Source of the DNA: Hoylesella pleuritidis JCM 14110 | Lineage (GTDB): Bacteria > Bacteroidota > Bacteroidia > Bacteroidales > Bacteroidaceae | NCBI RefSeq assembly: GCF_000613725.1 | Contig: NZ_BAJN01000004.1 | Span: 1 to 64,000, forward strand | Reading direction: 5' to 3' | DNA length: 64,000 bases | Part shown: piece after piece, positions 2,435 to 57,970 of the stretch | Layout: each line of letters begins with the position of its first letter | Numbering within the stretch: the first letter of the stretch is position 1 | Program-made: the position numbers and the translations under genes | Notes under the pieces: generated by a model | What the model was told of the DNA's origin: nothing | The model's database searches: none | What the model saw: the letters and a program-made list of their open reading frames with translations, nothing else

Positions 2435-2533
2435 TTAACCGTTAATCGTGTTATGATTAACGGTTAAATAGTGTGCAACTAACCGTTGGTTGCAGTGCGA
2501 TTAACGGTTAGTTATAAGCCGATTAACGGCTAA
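2435..2533. repeat. Five-site 22-bp phased dyad array (array A)
   Basis: Five near-palindromic 11-bp cores matching TTAACSGTTAA, centred at 2440, 2462, 2484, 2506 and 2528, exactly 22 bp apart. Sites 1 and 2 match the consensus perfectly. It sits just after the kbl stop codon, between convergent genes. On the right, box TTGTATGT (2546-2553) and nonamer TGATTTTCA (2557-2565, 29 bp from the last centre) mark the module end. No left nonamer is seen; its place is taken by the end of kbl. Confidence 0.92.
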
Positions 2534-2653
2534 TTGTAATGTGTCTTGTATGTAATTGATTTTCAATTGTTTATAAACGCTATTCCTAAATATTGATTTT
2601 CATTCGGGAATGGTGTCCTTTTGACTTTCTGTTTTATTGCGGAGTTATACGCT

Positions 2654-2835
2654 GATCGCCCTACACACAGGTGTGAGACGTGGTAAAATTATCGGGATTA
2701 GTTGATGGAATAATGTACTGAATGTCCTCTGCACGGATGTGAGAGATGTCCGATTGAGCACTTATGAATGATATGTTGTATGTTAGTGAATTGTAAAACG
2801 GTTTCCCGTTTACAGCCCTCCGACCCCTAATTTAG
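2654..2835 (+). repeat. Dispersed ~180-bp intergenic repeat, copy 1
   Basis: Colinear with 27559-27739. Starting at GATCG, 66 of 91 positions match without gaps, and most differences are transitions. The last 48 positions (2788-2835) match at 38. The right end, with CCCCTAATTTAG, runs over the last codons of the sirtuin gene. Both copies start roughly 100-120 bp to the right of a 22-bp array. No open reading frame is shared. It could be a decayed element or an RNA; I do not recognise it. Confidence 0.75.
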
Positions 2836-3534
2836 GGAGTGTAAGCTCTTGGTTAGCGCCTGCATTCCTGCGCTTGCACCCTTGGCGATATGCACGATAC
2901 GGCTGTTTGTGTCGGCCGTTACAGGTTCGGGGTCGATGATGTAGATAGGAGTGCCGGAACGAACGTAGCGAACCAAGCCTGCGGCAGGATAGACATTGAG
3001 CGATGTTCCGATGATGACGAAGATGTCGGCCGTACTTACTTCTGTTGCTGCGGGCTCGATCATCGGTACCGACTCACCGAAAAATACGATGAAAGGACGC
3101 AACAACGACCCGTCGCCGGCCTGTGTTCCGGGGTTCACTTCGGGGTTATCGGCCGTGAGTTCTTGAATGAAATGCGGGTTGTAAGGGTCGCGCTCGGAGC
3201 ATACTTTGGTTAGTTCGCCGTGCAGGTGGACGACTTTTGATGAGCCGGCACGTTCGTGTAGATTGTCCACATTCTGTGTAACGACCGTCACGTTATAGTC
3301 TTTCTCCAAATCGGCGATAAGCTTATGCCCCTCGTTCGGTTGCGCATCGAAGAGTTTCCGACGCAGCATATTATAGAAATTCGTGACAAGTGTAGGATCG
3401 TTTTCCCATCCTTCGTGCGACGCAACCTGCTCAACGGGGTAGTTCTCCCATAACCCATCGGATCCGCGAAACGTCTTGAAGCCGCTCTCAACAGACATTC
3501 CCGCACCGGTTAAAAATACAATTTTCTTTTTCAT
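2827..3534 (-). CDS. Sir2-family NAD-dependent protein deacylase
   Basis: 235 residues from the start MKKKIVF. NAD-binding motifs are TGAGMSVESG near the N-terminus and TQNVDNLHERAG, and the catalytic histidine lies in HLHGEL. The protein would remove acyl groups from lysine, releasing nicotinamide and O-acyl-ADP-ribose. The region that normally holds four zinc cysteines has only one (in KVCSERDP); the CxxC pairs are missing, which I recall as usual for Bacteroidota homologues. An in-frame upstream Met at 3600 is rejected because a minus-strand promoter box (TATTTTTG, 3565-3572) lies between the two starts. The stop overlaps a dispersed repeat. Confidence 0.9.
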   Translation of the reverse strand: MKKKIVFLTGAGMSVESGFKTFRGSDGLWENYPVEQVASHEGWENDPTLVTNFYNMLRRKLFDAQPNEGHKLIADLEKDYNVTVVTQNVDNLHERAGSSKVVHLHGELTKVCSERDPYNPHFIQELTADNPEVNPGTQAGDGSLLRPFIVFFGESVPMIEPAATEVSTADIFVIIGTSLNVYPAAGLVRYVRSGTPIYIIDPEPVTADTNSRIVHIAKGASAGMQALTKSLHSLN

Positions 3535-3564
3535 CTCTATCCGGTTCAAGTCATTAATAATGTA

Positions 3565-3624
3565 CAAAAATAGCACTTTTTCGGCAAATTGCGCACGCAC
3601 TGTCGATAAAAAGTAGTATCTTTG
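3565..3624. promoter_or_regulatory. Divergent promoters, sirtuin and first FKBP gene
   Basis: TATTTTTG on the minus strand (3565-3572) and TATCTTTG on the plus strand (3617-3624) both fit TAnnTTTG exactly. They are 30-45 bp from the respective start codons. Confidence 0.65.
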
Positions 3625-3666
3625 TGCGTTTTTAAATAAATCATATTATACTAAGACAAATTCTTT

Positions 3667-4271
3667 ATGGACAAAGTGAGTTATGCTTTGGGGTTGGGCA
3701 TCGGCCGACAGTTGTGCGATATGGGTGCGAAAGCATTGAATATCGATGATTTCGCACAAGCAATTAAAGATGTAATTGCAGGTTCTGAGCCGCAGATCGG
3801 CGACCAGGAAGCACAGCAAATCGTGCAGAATTTCTTCCAAGAGCAAGAAAAGAAGCAGCGTGCAGTTGCCGAAGAGAAACACAAGGACAGCAAGGTTGCA
3901 GGCGAAAAATACCTCAGTGAAAATGCAAAAAAGGACGGCGTGGTGACGCTTTCGAGCGGTTTGCAATACCAAGTGTTGAAAGAAGGCAACGGCAAATGCC
4001 CCAAAGCAACTGATAAAGTGAAGTGCCATTATGAGGGAATGCTTATCGACGGCACAATATTCGACAGCAGTGTACAGCGCGGCGAACCTGCAACTTTTCC
4101 GCTGAATCAAGTGATTGCCGGTTGGACCGAGGGCTTGCAGCTGATGCAGGAGGGTGCTAAATATCGCTTCTTCATCCTTATCACCTTGGTTACGGCGAAC
4201 GCGGAGCAGGTCAGTCGATACCTCCTTTTGCCACACTCATCTTTGATGTAGAGCTGATTGCAGTAGTATAG
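3667..4271 (+). CDS. FKBP-type peptidyl-prolyl isomerase (frameshifted near 4176)
   Basis: As read, the frame closes at 4251 with a nonsense tail after KYRFFI. Restoring one C in the CC at 4176-4177 continues through the expected FKBP C-terminus ([12 protein letters not shown] then [10 protein letters not shown]) to a TAG at 4269-4271, giving 201 residues. The N-terminal part is the helical FKBP_N dimerisation domain (from [10 protein letters not shown]). The FKBP domain starts near residue 95 ([28 protein letters not shown]). It has no signal peptide, so it is probably cytoplasmic, unlike the next two genes. It catalyses cis-trans isomerisation of prolyl bonds during folding. It is first of a three-gene tandem set and has its own TATCTTTG promoter. 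Confidence 0.85.
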
Positions 4272-4334
4272 CCCGACCGTCGGTCTGAAAACGAAAGATA
4301 AATATAAACAAACAAATAATAGAGTAAAACTAAA

Positions 4335-5206
4335 ATGAAGAAACTTTCAATTGTAGCCGTTCTGGCTATCGCAGCTGCAACGATCACATCTTGCGGCAAT
4401 TCAACGCCCAAAGCGGACTTGAAGAATGACTTGGACTCAATGAGCTATGCAATGGGTTATTCTCAGACGCAGGGTCTGAAAGAGTTTATGGTGGGTCGGA
4501 TGAACGTGGATACCACGTATATGGACCAGTTTATCAAGGGCGTTAACGATGGAGCCGGCGCCGGAGATGATAAAGCTAAGGCTGCTTATTACGCCGGAAT
4601 ACAGATCGGTCAGCAGATAAGCAATATGATGGTTAAGGGTATTAACCACGAGGTTTTTGGTGAAGACTCTACCAAGAGTATATCAATGAAGAACTTTATG
4701 GCTGGTTTTGTGGCTGGAACGACAGGCAAAAAGGCCATTATGACGATGGAACAAGCACAGCAAATTGCCCAGACTAAGATGGCGGCTGTTAAAGCAAAGA
4801 ATATGGAAAAGCAGTATGGCCCGAACAAAACAGCCGGTGAAAAGTTCCTCGCTGCTAACAAAACGAAGGCCGGAGTGAAGACATTGCCTCGGGAGTGCAG
4901 TATAAAGTCATCAAGGAAGGCAATGGCCCGATGCCCAAAGATACATCAATGGTGAAGGTAAACTATGAAGGTCGCACGATAGAAGGTAAGGTTTTCGACA
5001 GCTCTTACAAGCGAGGCGAACCCTTGGAATTGCGTGCTAACCAAGTGATTAAAGGTTGGACGGATGCGCTTGTGCATATGCCCGTAGGCTCGGTATGGGA
5101 AGTTTATATCCCGCAAGAGCTCGCTTACGGTGAGCGTGAACAAGGAGACATCAAGCCGTTCTCGGCTTTGATCTTCAAGATTGAGTTGATTAGTGCCGGT
5201 AAGTAA
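4335..5206 (+). CDS. FKBP-type peptidyl-prolyl isomerase, lipoprotein (frameshifted near 4889)
   Basis: The N-terminus has a lipoprotein signal with lipobox Cys in ITSCGN (about residue 20), so the protein is likely anchored in a membrane facing the periplasm. FKBP_N-type helices follow (SMSYAMGYSQTQG), then an FKBP domain (QYKVIKEGNGPMPK, GKVFDSSYKRGEP, VIKGWTDAL). The reading frame breaks after KTLP: adding one T at 4889 gives LPSGVQYKV and a single 290-residue protein ending at 5206. The role is folding of envelope proteins. It is the second of three paralogues; the next gene starts 13 bp after its stop. Confidence 0.85.
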
Positions 5207-5219
5207 TCATCTACGCGTA

Positions 5220-6196
5220 ATGAAAAAGATTCTTTTATTGGCGTTGGTTTTCGTGGCCGGCGCATCGGTCAGCACTGCCTGGGCCGGCAAAAAGAAAGAG
5301 AAGAAAGGCCAGCAAGCGCAGACCGAGCAAACGGTCGTGACGCTTTCGTCGTCTATCGACTCATTGAGCTATGCCGCAGGAAAGGCTGCTACGCGTGGAC
5401 TTATCCCCTATGTGCAGCAGCAGTATCAAGTAGACACGGCCTATATGACCGACTTCGTACGGGGCTTTAAGGATGCTTTGGGTAAAGCAAACGACTTAAA
5501 CTATGCGGCATATCTGGCCGGTGCGCAGATTGCTCGAATGGTTCAGCAGCGCATTTTGCCCGGAACGCAGAAGGATTTTGAGGGTACACGCGATTCGATT
5601 GACAGCAAGTTGTTCATTGCCGGATTCGTTTCTGCACTTTCCAACGATACCGCTCATTTTACCGAAGATGCCGCCCAACAATTCTTCGAGCAGCGTCGTA
5701 AAGCCGATAAAGAAGCTGTACGCGAACTCTATAAGGCTGAAAACGAAAAGTGGTTGCTGAAAACGCCAAGAAAGAAGGTGTGAAAGTCACTGCGAACGGA
5801 CTGCAATACAAGGTCTTGACTGCAGGAACGGGTGCTGTTCCGAAGCCGACTGACGAGGTAGTAGTGAAATATGAAGGCAAGCTCATCGACGGAACAATCT
5901 TCGATAGTTCATATAAGCGCGATCCGCAGATTTCCGTTTTTCGTTGCGATGGCCTGATTAAAGGTTGGACAGAGGCGCTGACGATGATGCCGGCAGGCAG
6001 TAAATGGGAACTCTATGTCCCCCAGTCGCTGGCCTATGGAGCAAGTCAGGTTGATAAAATCAAGCCTTATTCTACGTTGATTTTCACCGTAGAATTGGTC
6101 GAAATCAAGCAACCTAAACCCGAAGTGAAACCTGCCGCAGAGCTGACTCCTGCCAAAAAGGCACCTGCAAAGAAAGCTCCGCGCAAGCGTAAATAA
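5220..6196 (+). CDS. FKBP-type peptidyl-prolyl isomerase, secreted (frameshifted near 5756)
   Basis: The start MKKILLLALVFVAG opens a signal peptide ending around AWA-GKK, so the protein is exported. FKBP_N helices (DSLSYAAGKAA) are followed by an FKBP domain (LQYKVLTAGTG, GTIFDSSYKR, LIKGWTEAL). The frame breaks after NEKW: one extra G at 5756 yields NEKWLAENAKKEG and a 325-residue protein ending at 6196. The C-terminal tail is rich in Lys, Pro and Ala (from KPEVKPAAE to KKAPRKRK) and may bind nucleic acid, cell wall or other anionic partners; that is inference. It is the third of a tandem set, and all three are frameshifted. Confidence 0.83.
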
Positions 6197-6388
6197 TTCG
6201 TTTAAAAGACAGAACAAACTCCTTTATATATAATAAGGTATATAGATTCTGTAAATTGGATACTTATTGTCAGTTCATAAGTTCGTAAGTTGATAAGTTC
6301 TTATCGGTCGATGATTTTGAGATCTATTCGATTTCACATTGACAAGAAAGCAACTTAAAGACTTATAGACTTATGAACTGATTTTCGT
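6197..6388. other. Intergenic, AT-rich with degenerate TAAGTT repeats
   Basis: No gene seen. 6270-6375 holds several variants of TTCATAAGTTCG / GTTGATAAGTTC and their complement-like forms (ACTTATAGACTTATGAACTG). The same low-complexity theme occurs before korB, nusA and sufC. Confidence 0.5.
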
Positions 6389-6487
6389 TTAATGGCTTTT
6401 CGCCTTACGTTTTACCGTTATTTGTATGCCGTTTAACTGTTAAACGCATGCTGATTAACAGTTAGTTGCAGACCATTTAACGGTTAA
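6389..6487. repeat. Five-site 22-bp phased dyad array (array B)
   Basis: Centres at 6394, 6416, 6438, 6460 and 6482, exactly 22 bp apart. Site 1 is the divergent TTAATGGCTTT form (reverse of AAAGCCATTAA), and site 5 is a perfect TTAACGGTTAA. It lies between the FKBP cluster and korA, co-directional genes. The right nonamer position (6511) reads TGACATTTG, a weak match to the module end. Confidence 0.9.
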
Positions 6488-6540
6488 TCGTAATGCTTCC
6501 CAATACTGCTTGACATTTGTCAAGCAACAACTATCATTTT

Positions 6541-6560
6541 CAATGACTTTAAATCATCAT
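6541..6560. promoter_or_regulatory. Possible operator upstream of korA
   Basis: The dyad ATGACTT-T-AAATCAT has one mismatch between arms. It is about 100 bp upstream of the korA promoter. It is suggestive only. Confidence 0.25.
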
Positions 6561-6657
6561 TTTAGAAAGATTTCGTTGTAATTCAACCCCTATTATATCA
6601 CAATGCAAGCAAACGATATGTTTATGAGCATTAATTTGAAAATAAACCGTATTTCGT

Positions 6658-6688
6658 TTTGTTGTGTCTTGAATTTAAGGTATATTTG
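6658..6688 (+). promoter_or_regulatory. korAB promoter
   Basis: TTTG at 6658-6661 and TATATTTG at 6681-6688 are separated by 19 bp, matching the Bacteroidota promoter pattern. This places transcription start downstream of the longer ORF start at 6659 and supports the ATG at 6725. Confidence 0.7.
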
Positions 6689-6724
6689 CCGGCAGAATAT
6701 ACAAAAATCTTATATTTACATATT

Positions 6725-8574: not shown

Positions 8575-8617
8575 ACAACTTAAAAACTAATCAACTAAAC
8601 AACTCAAAAACTAAGCT

Positions 8618-9622: not shown

Positions 9623-9654
9623 TCCATAATTTTTTGTTTTTATACTATTAGTCA

Positions 9655-9698
9655 GGCAGAGATTCAAGTCGAGAGACCGTGGATCTCTGCCGTTTTTT
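9655..9698 (+). terminator. Rho-independent terminator after korB
   Basis: A perfect 9-bp stem GGCAGAGAT (9655-9663) / ATCTCTGCC (9683-9691) is followed at once by G and six T. Confidence 0.8.
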
Positions 9699-9733
9699 AT
9701 GCGTAAAAGTCGCTTTCATCCGATAAAATTCAC

Positions 9734-9741
9734 TAACTTTG
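9734..9741 (+). promoter_or_regulatory. cysS promoter -7 element
   Basis: TAACTTTG fits TAnnTTTG and is 26 bp upstream of the cysS start codon. Confidence 0.65.
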
Positions 9742-9767
9742 CACACAGATAAACAAGCATTATACCA

Positions 9768-11312: not shown

Positions 11313-11355
11313 CTTATATGTATTTGATAATCAGGTATATATAGAATAGGTGGCG

Positions 11356-11454
11356 ATTAGCGTTAATCGCATTGCGAAAAGCCGTTAAACGCAGGGCATT
11401 TAACCGTTAGTCAGCGTGCATTTAACTGTCAGTTGCAATACAAGTAATGGCTAT
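11356..11454. repeat. Five-site 22-bp phased dyad array (array C)
   Basis: Centres at about 11361, then 11383, 11405, 11427 and 11449. Site 1 (TTAGCGTTAA) lacks one base; site 2 is the AAAGCCGTTAA form. Both module ends are visible: TGATAATCA on the left at 11325-11333, and on the right TCGTATCT (11467-11474) then TGATATACA (11478-11486), 29 bp from the last centre. Confidence 0.9.
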
Positions 11455-16269: not shown

Positions 16270-16368
16270 TTAACAGTTAATCACGCTGCAACTAACCGTT
16301 AATCGGTGCGCAATTAACGGTTAAACGAAGGGTGACTAACGGTTAGTTGCGCGACATTTAACGGTTAA
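16270..16368. repeat. Five-site 22-bp phased dyad array (array D)
   Basis: Centres at 16275, 16297, 16319, 16341 and 16363. Sites 3 and 5 are perfect TTAACGGTTAA. The right nonamer reads TGTTTTTCG at 16392-16400, exactly 29 bp from the last centre (7 of 9 to TGATTTTCA). The left end is not evident. It lies between a terminator and the rimP promoter, so it is probably outside both transcripts. Confidence 0.92.
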
Positions 16369-18584: not shown

Positions 18585-21539
18585 ATGAGCATCAGATTAA
18601 ATAAAGCATTACGTGAATTAAACATCGGACTTCAAACGGCCGTTGAGTTCTTGGAGAAACGAAACGAACTGGGAGAAGTGAAAAACGAACTGAGTTTCAA
18701 ACTCAGTGAGGCCCAATACCAAGCGCTGATCGAAGCTTTCAAGCAGGATGCAGAGGTCCGTAGCCAGGCCGAACGCCTTTTCTCGAAGAAGTCCAAAGAT
18801 AAGAAGCCTTCGCGAGAGGCCAAAGACAATCGGGCAGAGAGTCTGCTCAAATCGACCAAACAACAGCAGTTTAAACCGCTGGGTAAAATCGATCTCGACA
18901 ACGTCGGTAAGAAACCGGCTGCCGATATACCTGTCGAGTCTGCGCAGGAGATGGCTCCGAAGAAAGAATCTTCTGCCAAAAGCGCCGCTTCCGAAGCATC
19001 GGAAAAGACAGCTCCGTCAACAATCGAACCGACTGTTGTACAAGAAAAGCAAGACGCAAAAGCCGTTGTGTCGACTGAAAAAGAGACAAACGTGCAACCC
19101 GTTGATAATGAGATGGTTGTAAAGTTGGGTGAGCCTGCTGCGCAACTAACGGTAAATCGCGATGCAACTAACGGTAAATCGCAGCACGAAAAGCCGTTAA
19201 ACGCAGTGCAAGTAACGGTATCTGAGAAACCGACTGATGATATCCCTGTTTCCGAGGGAGTAAAATCCGTAGAACAAGGCGTATCTGAATCTGCCGAAGA
19301 CAAGTCTTCCGGCCCCGCTATTTTCCAGTTGAAGAGTGAGAAAGCGATGCTCAACGCGCCCAAGGTAAACGTACTCGGGAAAATCGATCTCGATGCAATC
19401 AACCAGAGTACACGGCCTAAGAAGAAGTCGAAAGAAGAACGACGGAAAGAGCGCGAAGAGAAAAACCGACAGGCAGGAGGCGAGCGTAAGAAGCGGGTTC
19501 GTATCAACAAGGAGCGCGTAGATATCAATGCTGCGGCCAATCAGCCTGCGAATACCGGTAATTCGGCCGCAAACAAAAATGCCTCCGGTAAGAAAAGCAA
19601 GAACCGCAAGCGCAATCGCAAGCCTTTGGAAGTGAACGAAGAGGATGTAGCACGCCAAGTAAAGGAGACGCTGGCACGGCTTACCAATAAACAGAATCAG
19701 AACAAGAAGGGTGCGAAGTACCGCAAAGAGAAGCGCGATGCCGTGCAGGAGAAGCTCAACGAAGAGGCTCGTGCCGAGCGCAAAGACAGCAAAACGCTGA
19801 AGCTCACGGAGTTTGTCACCGTCAGCGAACTTGCAACGATGATGGATGTATCGGTCAATCAGGTTATCGGTACGTTGATGAGTGTCGGCATTATGGTGTC
19901 GATCAACCAGCGCCTGGATGCCGAAACAATCAATCTTGTTGCCGAAGAGTTCGGCTTCAAGACTGAATATGTGAGTGCCGAAGTGTCTGAAGCCGTGACC
20001 GAAGAGGCCGACGACGAGTCGGAACTCGTATCGCGCGCGCCCATTGTAACGGTGATGGGACACGTGGATCACGGTAAGACATCGCTGCTCGACTACATTC
20101 GCAAGACCAATGTCATTGCGGGTGAGGCCGGCGGAATCACTCAACACATCGGTGCTTACAACGTGAAGCTCGAAGACGGACGCCGTATCACTTTCTTGGA
20201 TACCCCGGGACACGAAGCGTTTACGGCTATGCGTGCCCGCGGAACACAGGTTACCGACATCGCGATTATCATCATTGCGGCCGACGACAGTGTGATGCCG
20301 ACCACGCGCGAGGCTATTGCGCATGCTCAAGCAGCTAATGTGCCGATGGTGTTTGCCATCAACAAGATTGATAAACCGGGTGCCAACTCTGACAAAATAC
20401 GTGAAGATCTTTCGCAAATGAACCTTCTTGTGGAAGATTGGGGTGGTAAATACCAGTGTCAGGAGATTAGTGCCAAGCAGGGGTTGGGCGTGAAAGAGCT
20501 CTTGGAAAAGGTGCTTCTCGAAGCCGAAATGCTTGACTTGAAGGCTAATCCCAATCGAAAGGCTACGGGAAGTATCATTGAATCGTCATTAGATAAAGGT
20601 CGCGGATATGTCAGTACGCTGCTCGTGAGCAACGGAACACTGCGGGTGGGCGACAATGTAATCGCCGGAACCAGTTGGGGTCGAATCAAAGCGATGTTCA
20701 ACGAGCGCAATCAGCGCATCGAAGAAGCATGTCCTGCTGAGCCTGCTATTATCTTGGGACTCAATGGTGCACCGACAGCCGGCGACACATTCCACGTTTT
20801 AGAGATCGAGCAAGAGGCTCGCGACATCGCCAACAAACGATTGCAGCTGCAACGAGAGCAAGGTCTTCGCACGCAGAAACGATTAACGCTGAGCGACATC
20901 TCACATCGAATTGCCTTAGGATCATTCAAAGAACTGAACATCATTGTCAAAGGAGATACCGACGGTTCGATAGAAGCGCTGAGCGATTCGTTCATCAAAC
21001 TGTCTACCGAAAAGATCAAAGTAGACGTCATTTACAAGGCCGTTGGACAGATTTCAGAGAGTGATGTCACCCTGGCCGATGCTTCTGACGCCATCATAGT
21101 GGGCTTCCAAGTGCGCCCGTCGGCTGCTGCACGCAAGCTGGCTGAGCAAGAAGGTGTAGAGATCAATACCTATTCCGTGATCTACGACGCCATCGACGAC
21201 GTGAAGTCTGCAATGATCGGAATGCTCGATAAAGTGAAGAAAGAAGTGGTAACAGGTGAAGTTGAGGTGCGCGAAGTATTCAAAATATCGAAGGTCGGAA
21301 CTGTTGCCGGTGCCTTTGTAACCGAAGGCAAGGTGCACAGAAGCGACAAAGCGCGGCTTGTTCGCGACGGAATTGTAATCCATACAGGCGATCTCAACGC
21401 CTTGAAACGTTATAAAGACGATGTTAAAGAGGTGGCTTCCGGCTTCGAGTGCGGTATCAGTTTCGTCAACTTCAACGATATTCAGCAAGGCGATATCATT
21501 GAAACCTTCACCGAGATTGAGGTTCAACAGAAGTTGTAG
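18585..21539 (+). CDS. infB: Translation initiation factor IF-2
   Basis: 984 residues. The N-terminal IF2_N motif ([22 protein letters not shown]) is followed by a long charged linker to about residue 400 and a second IF2_N-like element ([20 protein letters not shown]). The G domain then has G1 GHVDHGKT, G3 DTPGH and G4 NKIDKP. EF-Tu-like and C-terminal fMet-tRNA-binding domains complete it. It places initiator tRNA on the 30S subunit using GTP. Codons about 186-213 of the linker are made of four 22-bp dyad repeats of the intergenic family; since 22 is not a multiple of three, successive repeats are read in different frames, and the reading frame stays open. Confidence 0.97.
19146..19222. repeat. 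Four-site 22-bp dyad array inside infB (array K)
   Basis: Cores centred at 19151, 19173, 19195 and 19217, exactly 22 bp apart: CTAACGGTAAA twice, AAAGCCGTTAA, GTAACGGTATC. The linkers also resemble those of the intergenic arrays (GCAACTAACGG, GCACGAAAAGCCG). No fifth site is found 22 bp further on either side. Confidence 0.85.
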
Positions 21540-27361: not shown

Positions 27362-27460
27362 TTAGCTGTCAATTGTATGACGATTAACGGTTAACCGCGT
27401 GCCGTTTAATGGCTTTTCGCACGCCAACTAACGGTTATTTGTAATGCGTTTAACCGTTAT
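27362..27460. repeat. Five-site 22-bp phased dyad array (array E)
   Basis: Centres at 27367, 27389, 27411, 27433 and 27455. Site 2 is perfect; site 3 is the TTAATGGCTTT form. Both module ends are seen at exactly 29 bp: TGTAAATCA (27330-27338) and TGATAATCA (27484-27492). The inner box TTATATGT is at 27473-27480, 3 bp inside the right nonamer. Confidence 0.93.
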
Positions 27461-27558
27461 TCGTGATGTAGTTTATATGTCGCTGATAATCAATGCTATA
27501 TGAGTATTGCTCAGTTTCTGTTCTTTCGCCTTCTTATTCAGCTGCGGGGCGATGCGCC

Positions 27559-30609: not shown

Positions 30610-30708
30610 AAAGACGTTAGTCGAGTTGCATTTAACCGTTAAACGCAACCTGACTAACGGTTAAATGCAATCCAACTAATGATTAAACGCACACGATTTA
30701 ACGTCTAA
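30610..30708. repeat. Five-site 22-bp phased dyad array (array F)
   Basis: Centres at 30615, 30637, 30659, 30681 and 30703. The first core (AAAGACGTTAG) begins at the base right after the ddl stop codon. Site 2 is perfect TTAACCGTTAA. TGAAAATCA occurs in the last ddl codons (30591-30599), but 16 rather than 29 bp from the first centre. It occupies most of the 130-bp spacer between co-directional genes. Confidence 0.9.
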
Positions 30709-33734: not shown

Positions 33735-33830
33735 GTGGCAATTGGTGTATCGCTCCGCAATTGAATAGAAAACAAAAGAACATCATTCCCAAACGAAAAT
33801 CAACAAGTAGAGAGCGTCTTTATAAATGAT

Positions 33831-33993
33831 TGAAAATCAATTATATATAAAATGTCTCGCAATTAGCCGTCAATCGGTTTGCAACTAACGGTTAAATGCA
33901 TTGCGAAAAGCCATTAAACGACGTGTGTTTAACCGTTAGTTGCAAACCGATTGACGGCTAATTGCTTCTGGAATTGTATGCTGCTGATTTTCA
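33831..33993. repeat. Complete 22-bp array module with both ends (array G)
   Basis: Best-preserved module. The left nonamer TGAAAATCA is at 33831-33839. Five sites are centred at 33868, 33890, 33912, 33934 and 33956. The inner box TTGTATGC is at 33974-33981, and the right nonamer TGATTTTCA at 33985-33993. Each nonamer is 29 bp from the nearest centre. 33859-33896 and 33928-33965 are a 38-bp perfect inverted repeat around the middle site, which is of the AAAGCCATTAA form. Confidence 0.95.
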
Positions 33994-34200
33994 GTAAGAT
34001 ATTGAATAGAAGAGATCTAATTGCCTGTGGAATTTCCTTTTGGGTAAAATTCGCAATATAGAAGATATACATCTATTTTAAAATAAGGTAAAGAGTGGCA
34101 TCAGAAACAATCGTCGGCTGTGCTGATGGGCTACGGGTACAGTTCGAAAGGTAGAAGTTTTTACTTTGACGAGCAATAAATTGTCAATTCAGTCTCGTAA
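33994..34200. other. Intergenic, nothing recognised
   Basis: AT-rich sequence between array G and the palindrome at 34201. No reading frame, hairpin or known repeat that I can support. A stray TTACTTTG-like string at 34171 is not followed by a gene. Confidence 0.5.
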
Positions 34201-43342: not shown

Positions 43343-43441
43343 TTAACGGTTAATTGCTCGCTAATTAATCGTTAATCGGCTGCTAACTAACGGTTAATCG
43401 CACTGCAAGTAACGCTTAATTGAAGTGTAACTAACGGTTAG
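43343..43441. repeat. Five-site 22-bp phased dyad array (array H)
   Basis: Centres at 43348, 43370, 43392, 43414 and 43436; site 1 is perfect TTAACGGTTAA. The right nonamer TGTTTTTCA at 43465-43473 is exactly 29 bp from the last centre (8 of 9). The left end is not seen. It lies between rbfA and the permease gene, both on the plus strand. Confidence 0.92.
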
Positions 43442-50587: not shown

Positions 50588-50638
50588 GCAGTTGTCTATC
50601 TGCTTATAAATGACGATTTTGTCATTAATAGTCCTTTT

Positions 50639-50669
50639 CCCCCGCCGATATGTTCGGTGGGGGCTTTTT
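50639..50669 (+). terminator. Rho-independent terminator after secDF
   Basis: CCCCCGCCGA / TCGGTGGGGG (one G-U pair) is followed by C and five T. Confidence 0.85.
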
Positions 50670-50788
50670 GTTTATGAGTTAGCCATCGTTTCATCTCCGT
50701 TCTTTCTGCGAAAGAAGAGAGAACGGAGATGTTTCTGTATATGATTGAGTCTGATGTTCGTATGTTTTGAGTTGATAGGCTTATATAT

Positions 50789-50951
50789 TGAATATCAATT
50801 AGATACAAAGCCTATTGCAAGTAACGGCTAATGACACACTAATTAACCGTTAGATGCGTAGCGAATAACGGTTAAACACGATGCAATTAGCCGTTACTTG
50901 TAAGGTAACTGACGGTTAATTGTAAAGCTATTTGTATCTATTTGATTTTCA
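50789..50951. repeat. Complete 22-bp array module with both ends (array I)
   Basis: Left nonamer TGAATATCA (50789-50797) and box AGATACAA (50801-50808). Sites are centred at 50826, 50848, 50870, 50892 and 50914. Right box TTGTATCT (50932-50939) and nonamer TGATTTTCA (50943-50951). Both nonamers are 29 bp from the outer centres, and both boxes are 3 bp inside the nonamers, so the ends are a matched inverted pair. It lies between convergent secDF and hutI. Confidence 0.95.
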
Positions 50952-50986
50952 GTAATATACTTAACAAATGCCGATGGCGAAAGTTT

Positions 50987-51081
50987 AAAGGTGAAAATGT
51001 GGAGAAATGAAAAGGTGAAAAAGATGATTTATCTCTCTAATCACCTCTTTCACCTTTTCATTTCTCCACATGTTCACCTTT
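50987..51081. terminator. Long inverted repeat at the 3' end of hutI
   Basis: Arms 50987-51028 and 51040-51081 are 42 bp each with three mismatches around an 11-bp loop. The arms are built of GGTGAAA-type units. The right arm ends on the last base of the hutI stop codon. It could act as a bidirectional terminator or mRNA 3' protector for the convergent hut operon; there is no strong T run. Confidence 0.7.
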
Positions 51082-52328: not shown

Positions 52329-53802
52329 TTTCCAAGAATTGAACAGAGGTAGCGATTAAGGGGTACATCACGGTGTCGTCTGCAACGAAAGGAACTACCC
52401 GTCGATAGTCGGCGAAGATCTTTTCGATGGCCGGCGACGATTTCATCGGGCGTCGGAATTCTAATGCTTGAGCTGCATTGAAAAGCTCGATGGCTAATAC
52501 CCGCTCAGTGTTTTGTACCACTTTCCACAGCTTGGTGGCCGCATTTGCCCCCATACTCACGTGATCTTCTTGCCCCTGACTTGATGGAATGCTGTCTACG
52601 GAAGCCGGTGTACTGAGCTGTTTACTAAGACTTACCAGCGAGGCTGCCGTGTATTGGGGAATCATAAAGCCGCTATTCACGCCGGGATTGGCCACGAGGA
52701 AGCTCGGCAAACCGCGTGTTCCCGATACTAATTTATATATTCTGCGCTCGGAGATATTGCTGAGTTCGGTTAGTGCAATGGCTAAGAAGTCCATCGGTTG
52801 AGCGATAGGCTCGCCGTGGAAGTTGCCCGATGAGATGATAATGTCTTCTTCGGGAACCACCGTCGGATTATCGGTTGCTGCATTGATTTCTACTTCCAAG
52901 ACCGATTTTACATACTGATAGGTGTCTTTGCTGGCTCCGTGTACTTGCGGAATGCAACGGAACGAATAGGGATCTTGCACATAAGGTTTGGCGAGTTGGC
53001 CTATTTCGCTGCCTTCCAAAAGCGTTCTCATCCGCTCGGCCGTATCCATTTGGCCGCGATGGGGCCTTACCCGATGGACAGCTGGCGTGAAAGGCTCTAC
53101 CAATCCTTGGTAAGCGTCGAGCGACATAGCTGCTATGCGGTCGGCCCAATCAAGCATTTTACCTGCCCGAATCAATGCCCATATGCCGAAAGCGGCCATA
53201 TTCTGCGTGCCGTTGAGCAGTGCTAAACCTTCTTTCGAGCCCAATTCAATGGGCTTCCAATTGAATTTCTGACAGAGTTCGGCACCTGTTATCACTTTGC
53301 CTTGGTATTCTACCTCGCCCAATCCGAGTAAAGGCAAACTGAGATGGGCCAGCGGAACGAGGTCGCCCGACGCTCCGAGCGACCCTTGGCGATAGATAAT
53401 GGGGTAGACATCGTTATTGAAAAAGTCGACGAGTCGCTGCACGGTGTCGAGCTTTGAGCCTGAATACCCATAGCTGATTGACTGTATTTTGAGCAGCATC
53501 ATTATCTTGACGATCTCGTTGGGCATACGTTCGCCCGTGCCGCAAGCGTGCGACATTACCAAGTTTTTCTGTAACTGAGACAGCTGGTCGGCATCGATCG
53601 AGATGTGGCAAAGCGATCCGAAGCCCGTGGTTACACCGTAAATGGGGCGGTTGCTTACGTTCATCTTGCTGTCTAAATATTCCCGACACTTCACGATTCG
53701 TGCTTTAGCGTCATCGCTCAGTTCGATTTTGTAACCGCGGGTAATGATTTCATCGATCTTCTCTATCGTGAGGTGATCGGCACTGATTTGATGAATCTTC
53801 AT
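52309..53802 (-). CDS. hutH: Histidine ammonia-lyase
   Basis: 497 residues from MKIHQISADHLT; the in-frame Met 13 codons upstream is less family-like. The MIO prosthetic group forms from Ala-Ser-Gly in GSLGASGDLVPLAH. Other conserved blocks are YGVTTGFGSL, NGTQNMAAFG, RPHRGQMDTAERMR, QDPYSFRCIPQVHGASKD and DNPTVVPEEDIIISSGNFHGEP. It removes ammonia from histidine to give urocanate. The order ftcD-hutU-hutH-hutI contains the entire route to glutamate plus 5-formimino/methenyl-THF. A 113-bp A/C-rich spacer separates it from hutU. Confidence 0.96.
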   Translation of the reverse strand: MKIHQISADHLTIEKIDEIITRGYKIELSDDAKARIVKCREYLDSKMNVSNRPIYGVTTGFGSLCHISIDADQLSQLQKNLVMSHACGTGERMPNEIVKIMMLLKIQSISYGYSGSKLDTVQRLVDFFNNDVYPIIYRQGSLGASGDLVPLAHLSLPLLGLGEVEYQGKVITGAELCQKFNWKPIELGSKEGLALLNGTQNMAAFGIWALIRAGKMLDWADRIAAMSLDAYQGLVEPFTPAVHRVRPHRGQMDTAERMRTLLEGSEIGQLAKPYVQDPYSFRCIPQVHGASKDTYQYVKSVLEVEINAATDNPTVVPEEDIIISSGNFHGEPIAQPMDFLAIALTELSNISERRIYKLVSGTRGLPSFLVANPGVNSGFMIPQYTAASLVSLSKQLSTPASVDSIPSSQGQEDHVSMGANAATKLWKVVQNTERVLAIELFNAAQALEFRRPMKSSPAIEKIFADYRRVVPFVADDTVMYPLIATSVQFLENEFINN

Positions 53803-53954
53803 TCGAAAGTTTGTTTGATAAGTTCTGTCGGTAGTTGACAAGAAATCAGATTGACAAATAGTTGGGGCCTTATAATGACTTAGATAATCCCTTTTTCCCC
53901 TTGTTCACCGGTCTACTCGTTCACTTGTCAACTACTCAACTCTTAAAAATTGGG

Positions 53955-55964
53955 TTAAAATAAATTGTTAATGAGATTATCGTCTACCAAGTTCGGCAGG
54001 GTAACTTGCAGCTCGGGCGTGCGTGCCATTTCACGTTTGATGGCGTCGATCGACCCCGAATTGCGTGCCCATGACCGTCGGCTGATGCCGTTGTTGACGT
54101 CCCAGAAGAGCATACTCTTGATGTGTCGGGCTGCATCGGGGCTTCCGTCGACCACCATTCCGAATCCGCCGTTGATCACTTCGCCCCAACCTACGCCGCC
54201 GCCATTATGTATTGACACCCACGTTGCACCTCGGAAAGCATCTCCGATGACGTTTTGGATGGCCATATCTGCGCAGAATTGCGAGCCGTCATAGATGTTG
54301 GAGGTCTCCCGGAAAGGTGAATCCGTACCCGAAACATCGTGATGATCGCGACCGAGAACTACCGGACCGCGAAGCTCTCCACGCTTAACGGCGTCGTTGA
54401 AAGCCAATGCTATCCGGGTGCGTCCTACTGAATCGGCATACAAAATGCGTGCCTGCGAACCCACGACGAGATGATTTCGCCCGGCTTCTTTAATCCAATG
54501 GATATTGTCTTCGAGCTGACCGGCGATGTCGGGTGTGGCATTGCGCAGTTCGTCTTCGAGCACTTCGGTGGCCAAACGGTCGGTAATTTCCAAATCGTGA
54601 GGGTCTTCCGAGGCACAGACCCATCTGAAAGGACCGAACCCATAATCAAAAAACAGCGGTCCCATAATGTCTTGCACGTAAGAGGGATAGCGGAATTTGC
54701 CGTCCGAAAGCATAATATCCGCACCCGCTCTGCTGGCTTGAAGCAGGAATGCATTGCCGTAATCGAAGAAATACATACCGTCGGCTGCAAGTCGGTTGAT
54801 TGCTTTCACCTGCCGACGAAGCGATTCTTGCACTCGATTTTTAAACCCTTCGGGATCGTCGGCCATCATTTTGTTGGCCGATTCAAGTGTCATCCCGACG
54901 GGATAATATCCTCCCGCCCATGGGTTATGCAGTGAAGTCTGATCACTTCCGAGGTCGACGTGGATGCCTTCTGCTGCCAAACGCTCCCAAAGATCGACTA
55001 CATTGCCAACGTAAGCCATAGAAACGGCTTTGCGTTCGGCTACATATCGGCGGATGGCCGGTATCAGTTCGTCGAGGTTTTCGTGCAGTTCGTCTACCCA
55101 ACCTTGGTCGAAGCGCTTGCGCGCAGCCATCGGATTGATCTCTGCCGTGACGCTAACCACGCCGGCAATGTTACCTGCTTTGGGTTGTGCTCCTGACATT
55201 CCGCCGAGTCCCGAAGATACAAACAGCATCCCGTGAATATCCTTTTGACCTGGTTTTAACTGTTTGCGGGCTGCATTGAGCACCGTAATTGTTGTGCCGT
55301 GAACGATTCCCTGCGGACCGATATACATATAAGAGCCCGCTGTCATTTGTCCGTACTGGCTCACTCCGAGTGCATTGTCACGCTCCCAATCATCCGGTCG
55401 TGAGTAGTTTGGTATCACCATACCGTTTGTTACGACAACTCTCGGCGCGTCTTTATGTGATGGAAAGAGTCCCAAAGGATGTCCGGAGTACATTACCAGG
55501 GTCTGTTCGTCGGTCATTTTACTAAGGTATTGCATCGTAAGTCGATACTGTGCCCAGTTCTGAAACACAGCTCCGTTGCCACCGTAAGTGATAAGTTCGT
55601 GCGGGTGTTGGGCCACCCGGGGATCCAAATTGTTCTGAATCATCATCATAATGGCCGCTGCCTGCGCAGAATGATGAGGATATTCGTTCACCGGACGGGC
55701 ATACATCGCATAAGTCGGACGGTACCGATACATATAGATTCGGCCGTAACGACGAAGCTCTTCGGCAAATTCGGGGGCCAGTTCGGCGTGCAGTTGCTTG
55801 GGGAAATACCGTAAAGCGTTGCGTAGGGCGAGCCGTTTTTCCTCCTCATTTAATATGTCTTTGCGTTTCGGTGCGTGACTGACCGAGGTGTCATACGGTT
55901 GCAATGGGGGCAGTTCTACGGGTATTCCACCCGTGATATCGTTGATAAATTCTTGTTGTGTCAT
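53955..55964 (-). CDS. hutU: Urocanate hydratase
   Basis: 669 residues, the longer type of urocanase also seen in animals. Conserved blocks are ITYGGNGAVFQNWAQYRLTMQYLSKM, MYSGHPLGLFPSH, GLGGMSGAQPKAGNIAGVV (NAD site), GSDQTSLHNPWAGGYYPVGM, FDYGNAFLLQASRAGAD, GRDHHDVSGTDSPFRET and NGGGVGWGEVINGGFGMV. It hydrates urocanate to imidazolone-propionate with tightly bound NAD. Second gene of the operon, 16 bp after ftcD. Confidence 0.96.
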   Translation of the reverse strand: MTQQEFINDITGGIPVELPPLQPYDTSVSHAPKRKDILNEEEKRLALRNALRYFPKQLHAELAPEFAEELRRYGRIYMYRYRPTYAMYARPVNEYPHHSAQAAAIMMMIQNNLDPRVAQHPHELITYGGNGAVFQNWAQYRLTMQYLSKMTDEQTLVMYSGHPLGLFPSHKDAPRVVVTNGMVIPNYSRPDDWERDNALGVSQYGQMTAGSYMYIGPQGIVHGTTITVLNAARKQLKPGQKDIHGMLFVSSGLGGMSGAQPKAGNIAGVVSVTAEINPMAARKRFDQGWVDELHENLDELIPAIRRYVAERKAVSMAYVGNVVDLWERLAAEGIHVDLGSDQTSLHNPWAGGYYPVGMTLESANKMMADDPEGFKNRVQESLRRQVKAINRLAADGMYFFDYGNAFLLQASRAGADIMLSDGKFRYPSYVQDIMGPLFFDYGFGPFRWVCASEDPHDLEITDRLATEVLEDELRNATPDIAGQLEDNIHWIKEAGRNHLVVGSQARILYADSVGRTRIALAFNDAVKRGELRGPVVLGRDHHDVSGTDSPFRETSNIYDGSQFCADMAIQNVIGDAFRGATWVSIHNGGGVGWGEVINGGFGMVVDGSPDAARHIKSMLFWDVNNGISRRSWARNSGSIDAIKREMARTPELQVTLPNLVDDNLINNLF

Positions 55965-55980
55965 AGTGGTTCGTGATGTA

Positions 55981-57684
55981 TTATAGTTTGCTTTCCACGA
56001 TATTCATAATCTCTTTCTCTGCCTCGTTGGCTTTAGCAATCAGTTGGTTAGCCTCTGCTATGAGTCTGTCTGCTGTCTCGCGGTCTTTCAATCCGCCTGC
56101 GTTGATCTTGACATTAAGGCCCGCCCCGAGTACGGCAGCACGTGCGGCAAGAGCGCCGACACCGGCATCCGACACGCTGTTGGGGTTTCCTTCCTCGGCC
56201 ATTGCACGACAGATGTCGAATGTGCAATAAGCAGCCTGCATTGTATGCAGTGGTACTTGTGTGGCGTAAAGCGTGGCTTCCTGAATAGCTTTGCTGCGAG
56301 CCGCCTTGTCTTCGGCCGTTTGTTTGGGTAGGGCGAACGCCGACATAATGCGGTTGAAAGCCTCGGTGTCTTCGTCGACAAGTTCTAATAGCTCTGCGAT
56401 TTGTTCCTGGCCGCGGTCTGCCCAACGGCTGAATTTCTCCCATTGCGCATCCCATCCGCGTTTGTGAGACGACAGATTGGCCACCATCGTACCCAAAGCG
56501 GCAGCCAAAGCGCCCATATATGCGGCGATGGTTCCGCCTCCCGGAGCCGGCGATTCACGTGAAGTCTCCTCGGCAAAGTGTTTTACGGTGAGGTCGATCA
56601 GGCGCGATTGCTTGTCGATATCCTCCAAAAGGAACTCTATTACCTTCTCTCTCGGGTTGAAAGGTTTAAGATCCGACAGGCCCATCGAGCGTATAGCGAT
56701 GTCTATGATATCTGTTTCGGGGATGCCGGTAGAGCGTTGTTGTTTTTCAAGAAAATACTTGCCGGCCTCGATCAGTGTGCGTTTCGGGATGAGTCCCACG
56801 ATTTCGGTGCCCGTGATTCGCACGCCTCGGTTTTGCGCACAACGGCAAACTTCGTCGAATGCCACGTGCAACGGTGTGGCGTTTATATCGGTGATATTCA
56901 TCGAAACCTGTGCAATCTTATATTCATCGATATACCAACCGATAGCCTTCGTGCCTTTGAGCGTGCCCGGTTGCATTACGGGCTGTCCCTGTTCGTCGGT
57001 TTTTATCTTGCCCGTCAATGCGTCTCCCTCACGCAAAGGACGGCCTTTTTCGCGTACGTCGAAGGCTATGGCGTTGGCGCGACGCGTGGAAGTGGAATTG
57101 AGATTGAAGTTGGTGGCGATGAGAAAGTTGCGTGCTCCGACGGCCGTACAGCCCGTTCGGGCCAGCTTCTCATCATAAGGGCGCGCCCCGAAGTCGGGTT
57201 CTTTACCCGGCGTATTGACCTTTTCGGGCAGTGCTTCGTATTCGCCTTTTCGGCAAACGGCCAAATTCCGGCGTTCGGGTGTGCGTGCAGCGGCTTCGTA
57301 ACAGTAGGTGGGTACACCGAGATTGTCGGCAATGCGTTGTGCCAAACGGCGTGCCAGGTCGGCACATTCGTCCAGAGTGATATTTGAAACGGGTATCAGC
57401 GGCAGCACGTCTGTGGCTCCCATACGCGGATGAGCACCGTGATGCAGGCGCATATCGATGATCTGCGAGGCTTTCTCTACGGCCAGATAAGCCGCCTCTA
57501 TTACGTCTTCGGGACTCCCGACAAAGGTTACCACGGTACGGTTGGTGGCCTCGCCCGGGTCGACATCTAACAACTTGATGCCCTTTGAACGCTCGATGAT
57601 GTCGGTAATCTGCTTGATTACTTCCGGATTTCGACCTTCGCTGAAATTCGGAACGCACTCGACGATTTGTTTTTCTTTTTTCAT
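55981..57684 (-). CDS. ftcD: Bifunctional glutamate formimidoyltransferase / formimido-THF cyclodeaminase
   Basis: 567 residues with both domains. The transferase (about 1-325: IVECVPNFSEGRNPEVI, DPGEATNRTVVTFVG, HHGAHPRMGATDVLPLIPV) is joined to the cyclodeaminase (about 350-560: FAEETSRESPAPGGGTIAAYMGALAAALG, EDTEAFNRIMSAFALPK). It moves the formimino group from formiminoglutamate to tetrahydrofolate, then releases ammonia, giving glutamate and methenyl-THF. It takes the place of HutG/HutF routes. It is the first gene of the hut operon and has its own promoter. Confidence 0.96.
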   Translation of the reverse strand: MKKEKQIVECVPNFSEGRNPEVIKQITDIIERSKGIKLLDVDPGEATNRTVVTFVGSPEDVIEAAYLAVEKASQIIDMRLHHGAHPRMGATDVLPLIPVSNITLDECADLARRLAQRIADNLGVPTYCYEAAARTPERRNLAVCRKGEYEALPEKVNTPGKEPDFGARPYDEKLARTGCTAVGARNFLIATNFNLNSTSTRRANAIAFDVREKGRPLREGDALTGKIKTDEQGQPVMQPGTLKGTKAIGWYIDEYKIAQVSMNITDINATPLHVAFDEVCRCAQNRGVRITGTEIVGLIPKRTLIEAGKYFLEKQQRSTGIPETDIIDIAIRSMGLSDLKPFNPREKVIEFLLEDIDKQSRLIDLTVKHFAEETSRESPAPGGGTIAAYMGALAAALGTMVANLSSHKRGWDAQWEKFSRWADRGQEQIAELLELVDEDTEAFNRIMSAFALPKQTAEDKAARSKAIQEATLYATQVPLHTMQAAYCTFDICRAMAEEGNPNSVSDAGVGALAARAAVLGAGLNVKINAGGLKDRETADRLIAEANQLIAKANEAEKEIMNIVESKL

Positions 57685-57727
57685 ATTATGATTGTTTAGT
57701 TTGTAGTTAACGTTTGATATACGGTCA

Positions 57728-57735
57728 CAAATTTA
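57728..57735 (-). promoter_or_regulatory. hut operon promoter -7 element
   Basis: TAAATTTG on the minus strand, about 45 bp before the ftcD start, with a TTG 20 bp upstream of it. Confidence 0.65.
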
Positions 57736-57871
57736 GTAAGGTTTATCTGATTCGACAATCTTTAATATGAAAATCATCCGAGGTTTTAACTCTTTTAACT
57801 TTTAATGCAATGCAATGTGTTTTGCGGTGAGTTGTTGGTTGTGAAATAGGAGTAGATTGATCGCGTGATGA

Positions 57872-57970
57872 TTAACTGTTAATCGTCACGCGAAAAGCCG
57901 TTAATCAGCGCGCATTTAACGGTTAAACGGCGGGTAATTAACGATTAATCGTCGGGTGTTTAATGGTTAA
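57872..57970. repeat. Five-site 22-bp phased dyad array (array J)
   Basis: Centres at 57877, 57899, 57921, 57943 and 57965; site 3 is perfect and site 2 is AAAGCCGTTAA. This is the only array between divergent genes (ftcD and rpsU), about 140-150 bp from each promoter box. A possible end nonamer TGAAAGTCA (58005-58013) is in the opposite orientation and 40 bp from the last centre. Confidence 0.9.

What the first reader, a model, noticed from the sequence alone, without database searches (positions are those of the whole stretch)
2435..57970. Ten intergenic arrays of exactly five dyad sites at exactly 22-bp spacing
Ten intergenic regions (centres from 2440, 6394, 11361, 16275, 27367, 30615, 33868, 43348, 50826 and 57877) each contain five 11-bp near-palindromes of the form TTAACSGTTAA. 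I placed the centre of all 50 sites by hand. Consecutive centres are 22 bp apart in every array, although the cores and linkers themselves vary. At least nine sites match the consensus perfectly. The strict count and period under sequence drift imply selection on spacing: sites about two helical turns apart, AT-rich dyads separated by GC-richer linkers, as expected for cooperative dimer binding on one DNA face. They occur between co-directional, convergent and divergent genes, about every 5-6 kb, so they are not simply terminators. A chromosome-organising or partition-type protein, or a mobile repeat family, would fit. I know of no described element with this structure.
Basis: seen in the sequence. 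Interest (0 to 1): 0.93.

Follow-up and report, generated by a model that had tools for sequence, protein, structure and literature searches.

The report
22-bp ladders of palindromic DNA sites
This Prevotella-group bacterium carries, mostly between its genes, dozens of short rows of palindromic DNA sites set exactly 22 bases apart, and relatives carry rows with the same spacing but unrelated letters; the rows are likely docking strips for a still unidentified DNA-binding protein, which would make the spacing, not the sequence, the inherited feature.

Summary
In the 862 kb of this genome that I read (window included) there are 89 arrays of three or more sites. The 22-bp step is strict (297 of 314 intervals, 8 more are 44); "exactly five" is not (42 of 89, range 3-7). 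44 of 89 arrays have a second palindrome centred exactly 33 bp (1.5 periods) outside the last site. On the dense contigs arrays are more evenly spaced than random intergenic placement. They recur in 8 of 12 syntenic places of Hoylesella enoeca and coincide with gene-order breakpoints (15/26 against 2/31 array-free gaps).

The main surprise: other Prevotella-group genomes carry 22-bp arrays with unrelated cores, several families in one genome. One is very probably PINSR, the unexplained 188-bp repeat of P. intermedia, whose core is such a ladder. Arms do not covary, which argues against RNA hairpins.

Best reading: mobile-repeat-like elements carrying a cooperative protein-docking ladder, kept afterwards by selection on register. 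No binding protein was identified.

The parts
2435..2533 (.). array, 5 dyads, centres 2440-2528; 18 bp after the stop of a glycine C-acetyltransferase gene
2545..2577 (.). right cap palindrome of array 2440, centred 33 bp outside the last dyad
6389..6487 (.). array, 5 dyads, centres 6394-6482
11356..11454 (.). array, 5 dyads (first one weak), centres 11361-11449; at a gene-order breakpoint relative to H. enoeca
11313..11345 (.). left cap palindrome of array 11361 (centre 32 bp outside)
16270..16368 (.). array, 5 dyads, centres 16275-16363; orthologous five-site array in H. enoeca (L093, L169)
19146..19222 (.). eleventh array (3 strong sites plus 1 weak), inside the IF-2 coding sequence 18585-21539; also present, weaker, in H. 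enoeca
27362..27460 (.). array, 5 dyads, centres 27367-27455
27472..27504 (.). right cap palindrome of array 27367 (33 bp)
30610..30708 (.). array, 5 dyads (first one weak), taking up 99 of the 130 bp between two co-directional ORFs; H. enoeca has 6 units, i.e. exactly 22 bp more
33863..33961 (.). array, 5 dyads, centres 33868-33956; at a gene-order breakpoint
33819..33851 (.). left cap palindrome of array 33868 (33 bp)
33973..34005 (.). right cap palindrome of array 33868 (33 bp)
43343..43441 (.). array, 5 dyads, centres 43348-43436; array also in the orthologous gap of H. enoeca
50821..50919 (.). array, 5 dyads, centres 50826-50914, downstream of the SecDF gene
50777..50809 (.). left cap palindrome of array 50826 (33 bp)
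50931..50963 (.). right cap palindrome of array 50826 (33 bp)
57872..57970 (.). array, 5 dyads, centres 57877-57965, between divergent ORFs

Best explanation
These are dispersed, mostly intergenic elements built as a ladder of palindromic sites at exactly 22-bp steps, and they likely serve as docking rows for a sequence-specific DNA-binding dimer that would load side by side along the helix. Inferred: each family first spread as a mobile-like repeat (as PINSR seems to have done in the P. intermedia group) with its own cognate DNA-binding protein. Its sites are then kept because the nucleoprotein strip does something useful at gene borders, most likely local chromosome organisation or insulation. 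Untested: the identity of the protein, that it binds, and what the strip does.
For: Register: 297 of 314 intervals are exactly 22 and 8 exactly 44, although linkers are barely more alike within an array (5.29 of 11) than between arrays (5.15) and the linker centre carries 0.04 bits. Palindromic cores carry up to 1.46 bits per position. Arms do not covary positively, in 50 window sites or 385 sites, as expected for two half-sites read by protein and not for a hairpin. Caps: TGAN3TCA centred at exactly 33 bp in 53 of 178 flanks, 4 more at 32, at most 4 at any other distance. Little sign of recent copying: the most alike pair of 89 arrays (79% over 77 bp) is barely above arrays made by shuffling units (tops 75-78% in three shuffles; means 62.8% and 61%). 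Of 12 syntenic places with an H. enoeca array, 8 have one here. One array differs by exactly one 22-bp unit between 99%-identical flanks. Spacing on C48: CV 0.46 against 0.71+-0.10 for random gaps, 2 of 2000. Period without sequence: near tnaA, lag 22 in 11 of 29 genus loci, at most 4 at any other lag from 13 to 40; in G111, 71 lag-22 clusters in 480 kb with many unrelated cores, against 23 at six control lags together.
Against: No binding protein was found and no regulator recurs beside the low-copy families looked at. Caps are rare in H. enoeca (3 of 108 flanks at 33 bp); a strict palindrome test (7 of 8 arm pairs) finds only 5 of 178 own flanks and 1 of 108 there. Four of 12 syntenic places lack the array in own. 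Nine of 91 arrays lie inside predicted ORFs, odd for architectural or regulatory sites. IF-2 loci of 19 genus genomes show no lag-22 array and G190 shows none in 40 kb. Even spacing fails on C49 (561 of 2000) and in the pooled CV (564 of 2000), and could also come from selection against close repeats. 22 bp is not an exact multiple of 10.5.
Confidence: 0.5

Rival explanations
1. Purely selfish non-autonomous mobile repeats (PINSR- or MITE-like), in which the 22-bp ladder is the set of sites read by a transposase or recombinase supplied elsewhere. The host gains nothing.
For: Dispersed, species-specific families; PINSR-type copies in G111 are 81% alike at the median and 90% at most over 189 bp, i.e. 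a burst of copying. Arrays lie inside ORFs and at gene-order breakpoints. Caps on both sides of 9 of 89 own arrays could act as inverted ends, and one H. enoeca array (L170:7443) lies between 47-nt inverted repeats.
Against: No clean empty site or target duplication in the 4 presence/absence places aligned. Little sign of recent copying among 89 own arrays. Register is kept although linkers are near random. The single Y1 transposase of this genome has its own, different hairpins. One array with flanks (16275) has no match in plasmid or phage records.
Confidence: 0.28
2. Passive minisatellites: a 22-bp unit is duplicated by slippage or unequal exchange, so the period is a by-product of copying and has no binding function.
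For: Whole-unit change of exactly 22 bp at array 30615; PINSR-type core modules occur in swapped order in register; near-identical tandem units in Prevotella RUG136 (L092).
Against: Units within an array are hardly more alike than between arrays. Unrelated families in several genomes share one period, 22, which slippage does not predict. Caps sit at half-period positions.
Confidence: 0.1
3. An RNA element: the array is transcribed as a 3' untranslated structure (terminator or stabiliser).
For: Arrays lie in gaps, somewhat more often in convergent (25 of 67 gaps of 120 bp or more) than in divergent ones (15 of 69), Fisher p 0.06. Cap palindromes could form hairpins (inference).
Against: No arm covariation in 50 sites and lower than shuffled in 385 (the latter is affected by selection on score). 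No Rfam family matches in the window except tRNAs. 15 of 82 arrays are in divergent gaps.
Confidence: 0.06
4. Operators of an ordinary transcription factor with a large regulon.
For: Palindromic half-sites with clear information content; low-copy families in G111 lie beside TonB receptors and a hybrid two-component regulator.
Against: 25 of 82 arrays lie in convergent gaps, where no predicted gene starts, and 9 more inside ORFs. On dense contigs they are evenly spaced, and neighbours in the window include unrelated housekeeping genes. No regulator recurs next to the low-copy families looked at.
Confidence: 0.06

Closest known systems
PINSR, P. intermedia/nigrescens group-specific repeat (Naito et al. 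2015, PMC4755523; abstract, passages and section 3.4 read)
   Same: Paper: 188 bp, intergenic, 177 and 184 copies in two strains, no terminal inverted repeats, said to have played a role in rearrangement. Genome G111 (two contigs of 1.97 and 0.71 Mb, tnaA present) holds a repeat of about 189 bp with one copy about 240 bp downstream of tnaA and 36 copies in 480 kb; eight of its ten best dyad centres are the multiples of 11 from 0 to 77.
   Different: Its cores are AAAA-N7-TTTT, not TTAACSGTTAA, and its copies are far more alike than ours. The paper gives the consensus only as a figure, so identity with the G111 repeat is inferred from size, place and copy number; its main text has no '22 bp'.
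BrickBuilt MITE of Porphyromonas gingivalis (Klein et al. 2015, PMC4596501; abstract, one section and passages read)
   Same: Dispersed intergenic elements in the Bacteroidales with a tandem array of about the same period, leader and tail flanks, and whole-unit expansion between strains.
   Different: 23 nt, up to 22.8 units, direct repeats with 0-11% mismatches whose printed consensus AGAYCATARTATCCTCTCRTRTG is not a dyad, 19 copies, IS5-type terminal inverted repeats.
REP/BIME elements with RAYT transposases (recalled)
   Same: Many dispersed intergenic palindromic units, species-specific.
   Different: REPs are hairpins with no fixed 22-bp ladder; the only Y1 transposase found here is flanked by other hairpins.
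Iterons and plasmid centromere arrays such as parC (recalled)
   Same: Works like: rows of protein sites one or two helical turns apart that nucleate a filament.
   Different: Those are single loci beside their own gene; these are dozens of dispersed arrays.

Membership tests
PINSR | 188-bp consensus sequence | tested here: not met
   Tested only against a proxy: the G111 repeat taken as PINSR has AAAA-N7-TTTT cores, window arrays TTAACSGTTAA. The printed consensus was not available as text.
PINSR | dispersed, intergenic, many copies | tested here: met
   89 arrays in 862 kb of 2.56 Mb; 82 of 91 in gaps between predicted ORFs. The genome-wide number of arrays was not counted.
PINSR | no terminal inverted repeats | tested here: inconclusive
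   Cap palindromes on both sides in 9 of 89 own arrays; one H. enoeca array lies between 47-nt inverted repeats.
22-bp dyad ladder (defined here) | exact 22-bp register of dyads | tested here: met
   297+8 of 314 intervals; G111 repeat: eight of the ten best dyad centres at multiples of 11.
MITE / BrickBuilt | terminal inverted repeats and target duplications | tested here: inconclusive
   Caps on both sides in 9 of 89 arrays; no clean empty site or duplication in the 4 places aligned.
MITE / BrickBuilt | near-identical direct repeat units | tested here: not met
   Units within an array 5.29 of 11 linker bases alike, between arrays 5.15.
REP/RAYT | cognate Y1 transposase flanked by the same element | tested here: not met
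   One Y1_Tnp gene, flanked by other hairpins; an array lies about 370 bp downstream on one side only.
structured RNA | compensatory changes in paired arms | tested here: not met
   Arm matches not above shuffled.
plasmid/phage-borne element | relatives in plasmid or phage records | tested here: not met
   One array with flanks (16275, 210 bp), blastn words of 11, E<=0.01: no match in 72,556 plasmid and 50,697 phage records.
iteron / centromere array | cognate initiator or partition gene beside the array | not tested
   Neighbours were examined only for low-copy G111 families and nine window genes.

The most novel reading that the evidence does not exclude
A whole bacterial lineage (Prevotella and probably its sister genera) inherits a geometry, not a sequence: chromosome-wide strips of dimer sites at 22 bp, capped at half-period, whose DNA letters and cognate proteins turn over like centromeres. 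Each strip would be a small nucleoprotein filament that marks gene borders about every 6 kb, thins out towards the terminus, and channels genome rearrangement.
Probability: 0.3. Interest if true: 0.95.

Novelty: new variant of a known kind. Interest (0 to 1): 0.84.

Why it matters
It gives an anatomy to an unexplained repeat class (PINSR, if the match made here is right) in common oral bacteria and shows that the conserved feature is a 22-bp rhythm under turnover of the letters. If a protein family reads it, this is a chromosome-wide DNA-protein system with centromere-like evolution in a major gut and oral lineage. It would make testable the open question of how Bacteroidota chromosomes, including the two-chromosome Prevotella described in PMC4755523, are organised and rearranged.

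Tried and rejected
RNA hairpin: arms of one site, and cores of different sites in one array, were tested for covariation. Same-site arms show no gain (in 385 sites below all 1000 shuffles, which may be a selection effect of the score cut). Cores within an array are slightly more complementary than shuffled (7.77 against 7.68+-0.05 of 11; 13 of 500 shuffles reach it), too little to be a structure.

RAYT/REP: one Y1 transposase found, with other hairpins. Plasmid or phage origin: no match for the one array tried. Rfam: only tRNAs in the window.

Simple hybrid crossover at breakpoints: in nine cases looked at, the aligned blocks generally stop before the array (mostly by tens to a few hundred bp) and the arrays there are not clean joins of two own arrays, so the mechanism of exchange is open. 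Of 30 breakpoint ends, 21 have an own array within 900 bp (chance 12%).

Insertion sites: 4 places with an array in H. enoeca only gave no target duplication; one is a coding region aligned without a gap, where own has no recognisable array.

Cognate regulator: ten genes beside low-copy G111 families share no regulator. A first tnaA search used too strict a limit and found nothing; repeated with another model.

Samples and negatives: the tnaA loci are the 30 best-scoring matches (65 of 398 genus genomes matched; 29 loci used, one dropped for runs of N), the 30 best among 144 of 198 matching genomes of the order, and all 26 matching genomes among 101 of the family. Other families of the order: lag 22 in 2 of 30; other genera of the family: 6 of 26, not significant against that (p 0.13); genus against other families p 0.005. 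IF-2 loci: 0 of 19 genus genomes, 1 of 10 others. G190: 0 in 40 kb. G378: 4 at lag 22 against up to 3 at other lags, so weak. Of 77 H. enoeca arrays 45 were unmapped and 6 at edges, because only part of each genome was fetched. ORFs were called by a greedy longest-ORF script, not a gene finder, so gap types are approximate.

Papers: searches. Only PMC4755523 and PMC4596501 were opened (outline with abstract, one section each, passages); all others were seen as listings.
Full report
WHAT IS IN THE WINDOW. Each has five 11-bp near-dyads with centres exactly 22 bp apart. Nine of the 50 sites are perfect TTAACSGTTAA, and there is no other perfect one in the 64 kb. An eleventh array of three strong sites and one weak one (19146-19222) lies inside the IF-2 coding sequence. 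The window is contig 46, bases 1-64000, of an unnamed 2.56-Mb genome in 49 contigs. Its close relative by name is Hoylesella enoeca, found by a pattern scan.

NOT CHANCE. A paired-dyad pattern with up to three mismatches occurs 185 times on the forward strand of the genome and never in the reversed control. I read 862 kb of this genome, window included. At lag 22 it has 95 periodic places, at most 12 at any other lag from 14 to 40, and none after dinucleotide shuffling (shuffled at lags 20-24 only).

ANATOMY. In 102 clusters of two or more strong sites, 297 of 314 intervals are exactly 22 and 8 are exactly 44. 89 arrays have three or more sites; after extension to weak outer sites they have 3 (7), 4 (32), 5 (42), 6 (7) or 7 (1). 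So the period is strict and the number is not. Over 385 sites the core positions carry up to 1.46 bits and the linker centre 0.04 bits. The linker ends tend to a second dyad (TYGCA-N-TGCRA), so dyads alternate every 11 bp. Units within an array are hardly more alike in the linker than units of different arrays (5.29 against 5.15 of 11; 19 of 500 permutations reach it), and unit number hardly matters. The two arms of a site do not covary positively.

CAPS. TGAN3TCA, the heart of a palindrome TTTGTAT-TTGATWWTCAA-ATACAAA, is centred at exactly 33 bp outside the outermost dyad in 53 of 178 flanks, at 32 bp in 4, and at any other distance in at most 4. 33 is one and a half periods. 44 of 89 arrays have it on at least one side and 9 on both. 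A five-site array with both caps is about 190 bp. By a strict palindrome test only 5 of 178 flanks pass, and in H. enoeca the cap is rare (3 of 108 flanks by motif, 1 by the strict test).

WHERE THEY LIE. By simple ORF calling, 82 of 91 arrays lie in gaps (42 tandem, 25 convergent, 15 divergent) and 9 inside predicted ORFs. On contig C48, 37 arrays are 6.0 kb apart with CV 0.46, against 0.71+-0.10 for random placement in gaps (2 of 2000 reach it). C44 and C46 show the same trend (53 and 70 of 2000) and C49 does not (561 of 2000). Over all long contigs, pairs closer than 2.5 kb number 4 against 12.3 expected (0 of 2000), while the pooled CV is not unusual (564 of 2000), as densities differ between contigs: C49 is three times sparser. 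C49 has lower GC and a positive-to-negative skew switch, which suggests it spans the terminus (inference).

EVOLUTION. Against H. enoeca, aligned blocks fall mostly into about 84-88% or 96-99% identity. Of 12 syntenic places that hold an H. enoeca array, 8 hold one here. Array 30615 has five units here and six there, with 99% identical flanks, a difference of exactly 22 bp. The IF-2 array is in both. Arrays coincide with gene-order breakpoints: 15 of 26 mapped H. enoeca arrays have flanks that map apart, against 2 of 31 array-free gaps and 15 of 147 random points; in the other direction 16 of 22 against 4 of 35 and 19 of 158 (Fisher p 3e-5 and 6e-6). At breakpoints 21 of 30 ends have an own array within 900 bp (chance 12%), but the arrays are not clean hybrids in nine cases looked at. 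The most alike pair of 89 own arrays (79% over 77 bp) is barely above arrays made by shuffling units (tops 75-78% in three shuffles), so there is little sign of recent copying here.

THE RHYTHM WITHOUT THE SEQUENCE. The TTAAC-type model finds 22 of 398 genus genomes at E 1e-6, own included; below 1e-15 only this genome and one whose hits have the same contig coordinates as H. enoeca. Yet around tnaA, 11 of 29 genus loci have a lag-22 array, those printed having other letters, against at most 4 at any other lag from 13 to 40; other families of the order have 2 of 30 (p 0.005); other genera of the family have 6 of 26, not significant. IF-2 loci showed none in 19. In genome G111, 480 kb hold 71 lag-22 clusters, against 23 at six control lags together. 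Many are one repeat of about 189 bp with AAAA-N7-TTTT cores; others have unrelated cores such as TACACGTA, AAATATGACGTCATATTT, TTATCTAAGCTTAGATAA and TTGGACTAACGTGTCCAA, all at 22 bp. In the 36 aligned copies of the 189-bp repeat, eight of the ten best dyad centres are the multiples of 11 from 0 to 77. By length, copy density and position downstream of tnaA it matches PINSR (PMC4755523, section 3.4). G111 is unnamed and the PINSR consensus is printed only as a figure, so this identity is inferred. The 37 copies compared are 81% alike at the median and up to 90% (41% at the lowest), with core modules in swapped order, so that family has spread more recently.

HOW IT LIKELY WORKS. Exact spacing with near-random linkers, palindromic half-sites without covariation, half-period caps, and one spacing shared by unrelated cores point to proteins that bind as dimers and touch their neighbours, with specificity that differs between families. 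This is inference: no protein was found. Spread by a mobile-like process and later retention for a chromosomal role would reconcile the recent PINSR-type burst, the old register-keeping arrays here, the even spacing and the breakpoint link. The rivals in order are a purely selfish element, a passive minisatellite, an RNA element and an ordinary regulon.

KNOWN OR NEW. PINSR is described without this anatomy in the section I read, and the words '22 bp' and '22-bp' are absent from that paper's main text. BrickBuilt of P. gingivalis is a 23-nt direct-repeat MITE with terminal repeats, like this in being a minisatellite inside a dispersed element but failing the unit-likeness test and, by its printed consensus, the dyad. 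My paper searches listed no title or abstract describing a 22-bp ladder in Prevotella; most subscription papers are not in that library. I therefore rate it a new variant of a known kind (dispersed species-specific repeats), with a bolder reading open.

Noticed in passing
own genome, 770 half-sites of 385 sites: Half-sites come in discrete alleles: after GTTA, a G or C at +5 is followed by TT in 62 of 70 and 30 of 32 cases, while A at +5 is followed by TC, AC, TT or AT; a separate GCTTTT type occurs 61 times.
   Followed up: partly
window and C48 against Hoylesella enoeca (L168-L172): Identity falls mostly into 84-88% or 96-99% in long blocks, as if large segments had been exchanged between the two lineages.
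   Followed up: partly
window 18585-21539 (IF-2): The IF-2 array corresponds to about 22 extra residues (66 bp, three units) in a variable linker relative to the IF-2 of one relative (L271); H. enoeca IF-2 has the same insert.
   Followed up: partly
L269:1423-1944: The only Y1 (HUH) transposase gene found in this genome, flanked by its own hairpins GGCACTGTTG..CAACAGTGCC, a candidate REP/RAYT pair unrelated to the arrays; an array with a cap-like sequence lies about 370 bp downstream.
   Followed up: partly
contig C49 of the own genome: Arrays are three times sparser and often weaker on C49, which has lower GC and a skew switch typical of a replication terminus.
   Followed up: partly
L170:7381-7571 (H. 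enoeca): One H. enoeca array lies between 47-nt inverted repeats, 91% complementary and 97 nt apart.
   Followed up: partly
L166, L146 and L139: G190 shows 18-bp-period places and none at 22; two tnaA loci (G190 and G006) also peak at 18.
   Followed up: no
L263:19059 and L252:13936 (G111): Low-copy 22-bp families, the first with about ten units, unrelated in sequence to the PINSR-type repeat.
   Followed up: no
window 59831-61618: Five tRNA genes.
   Followed up: no
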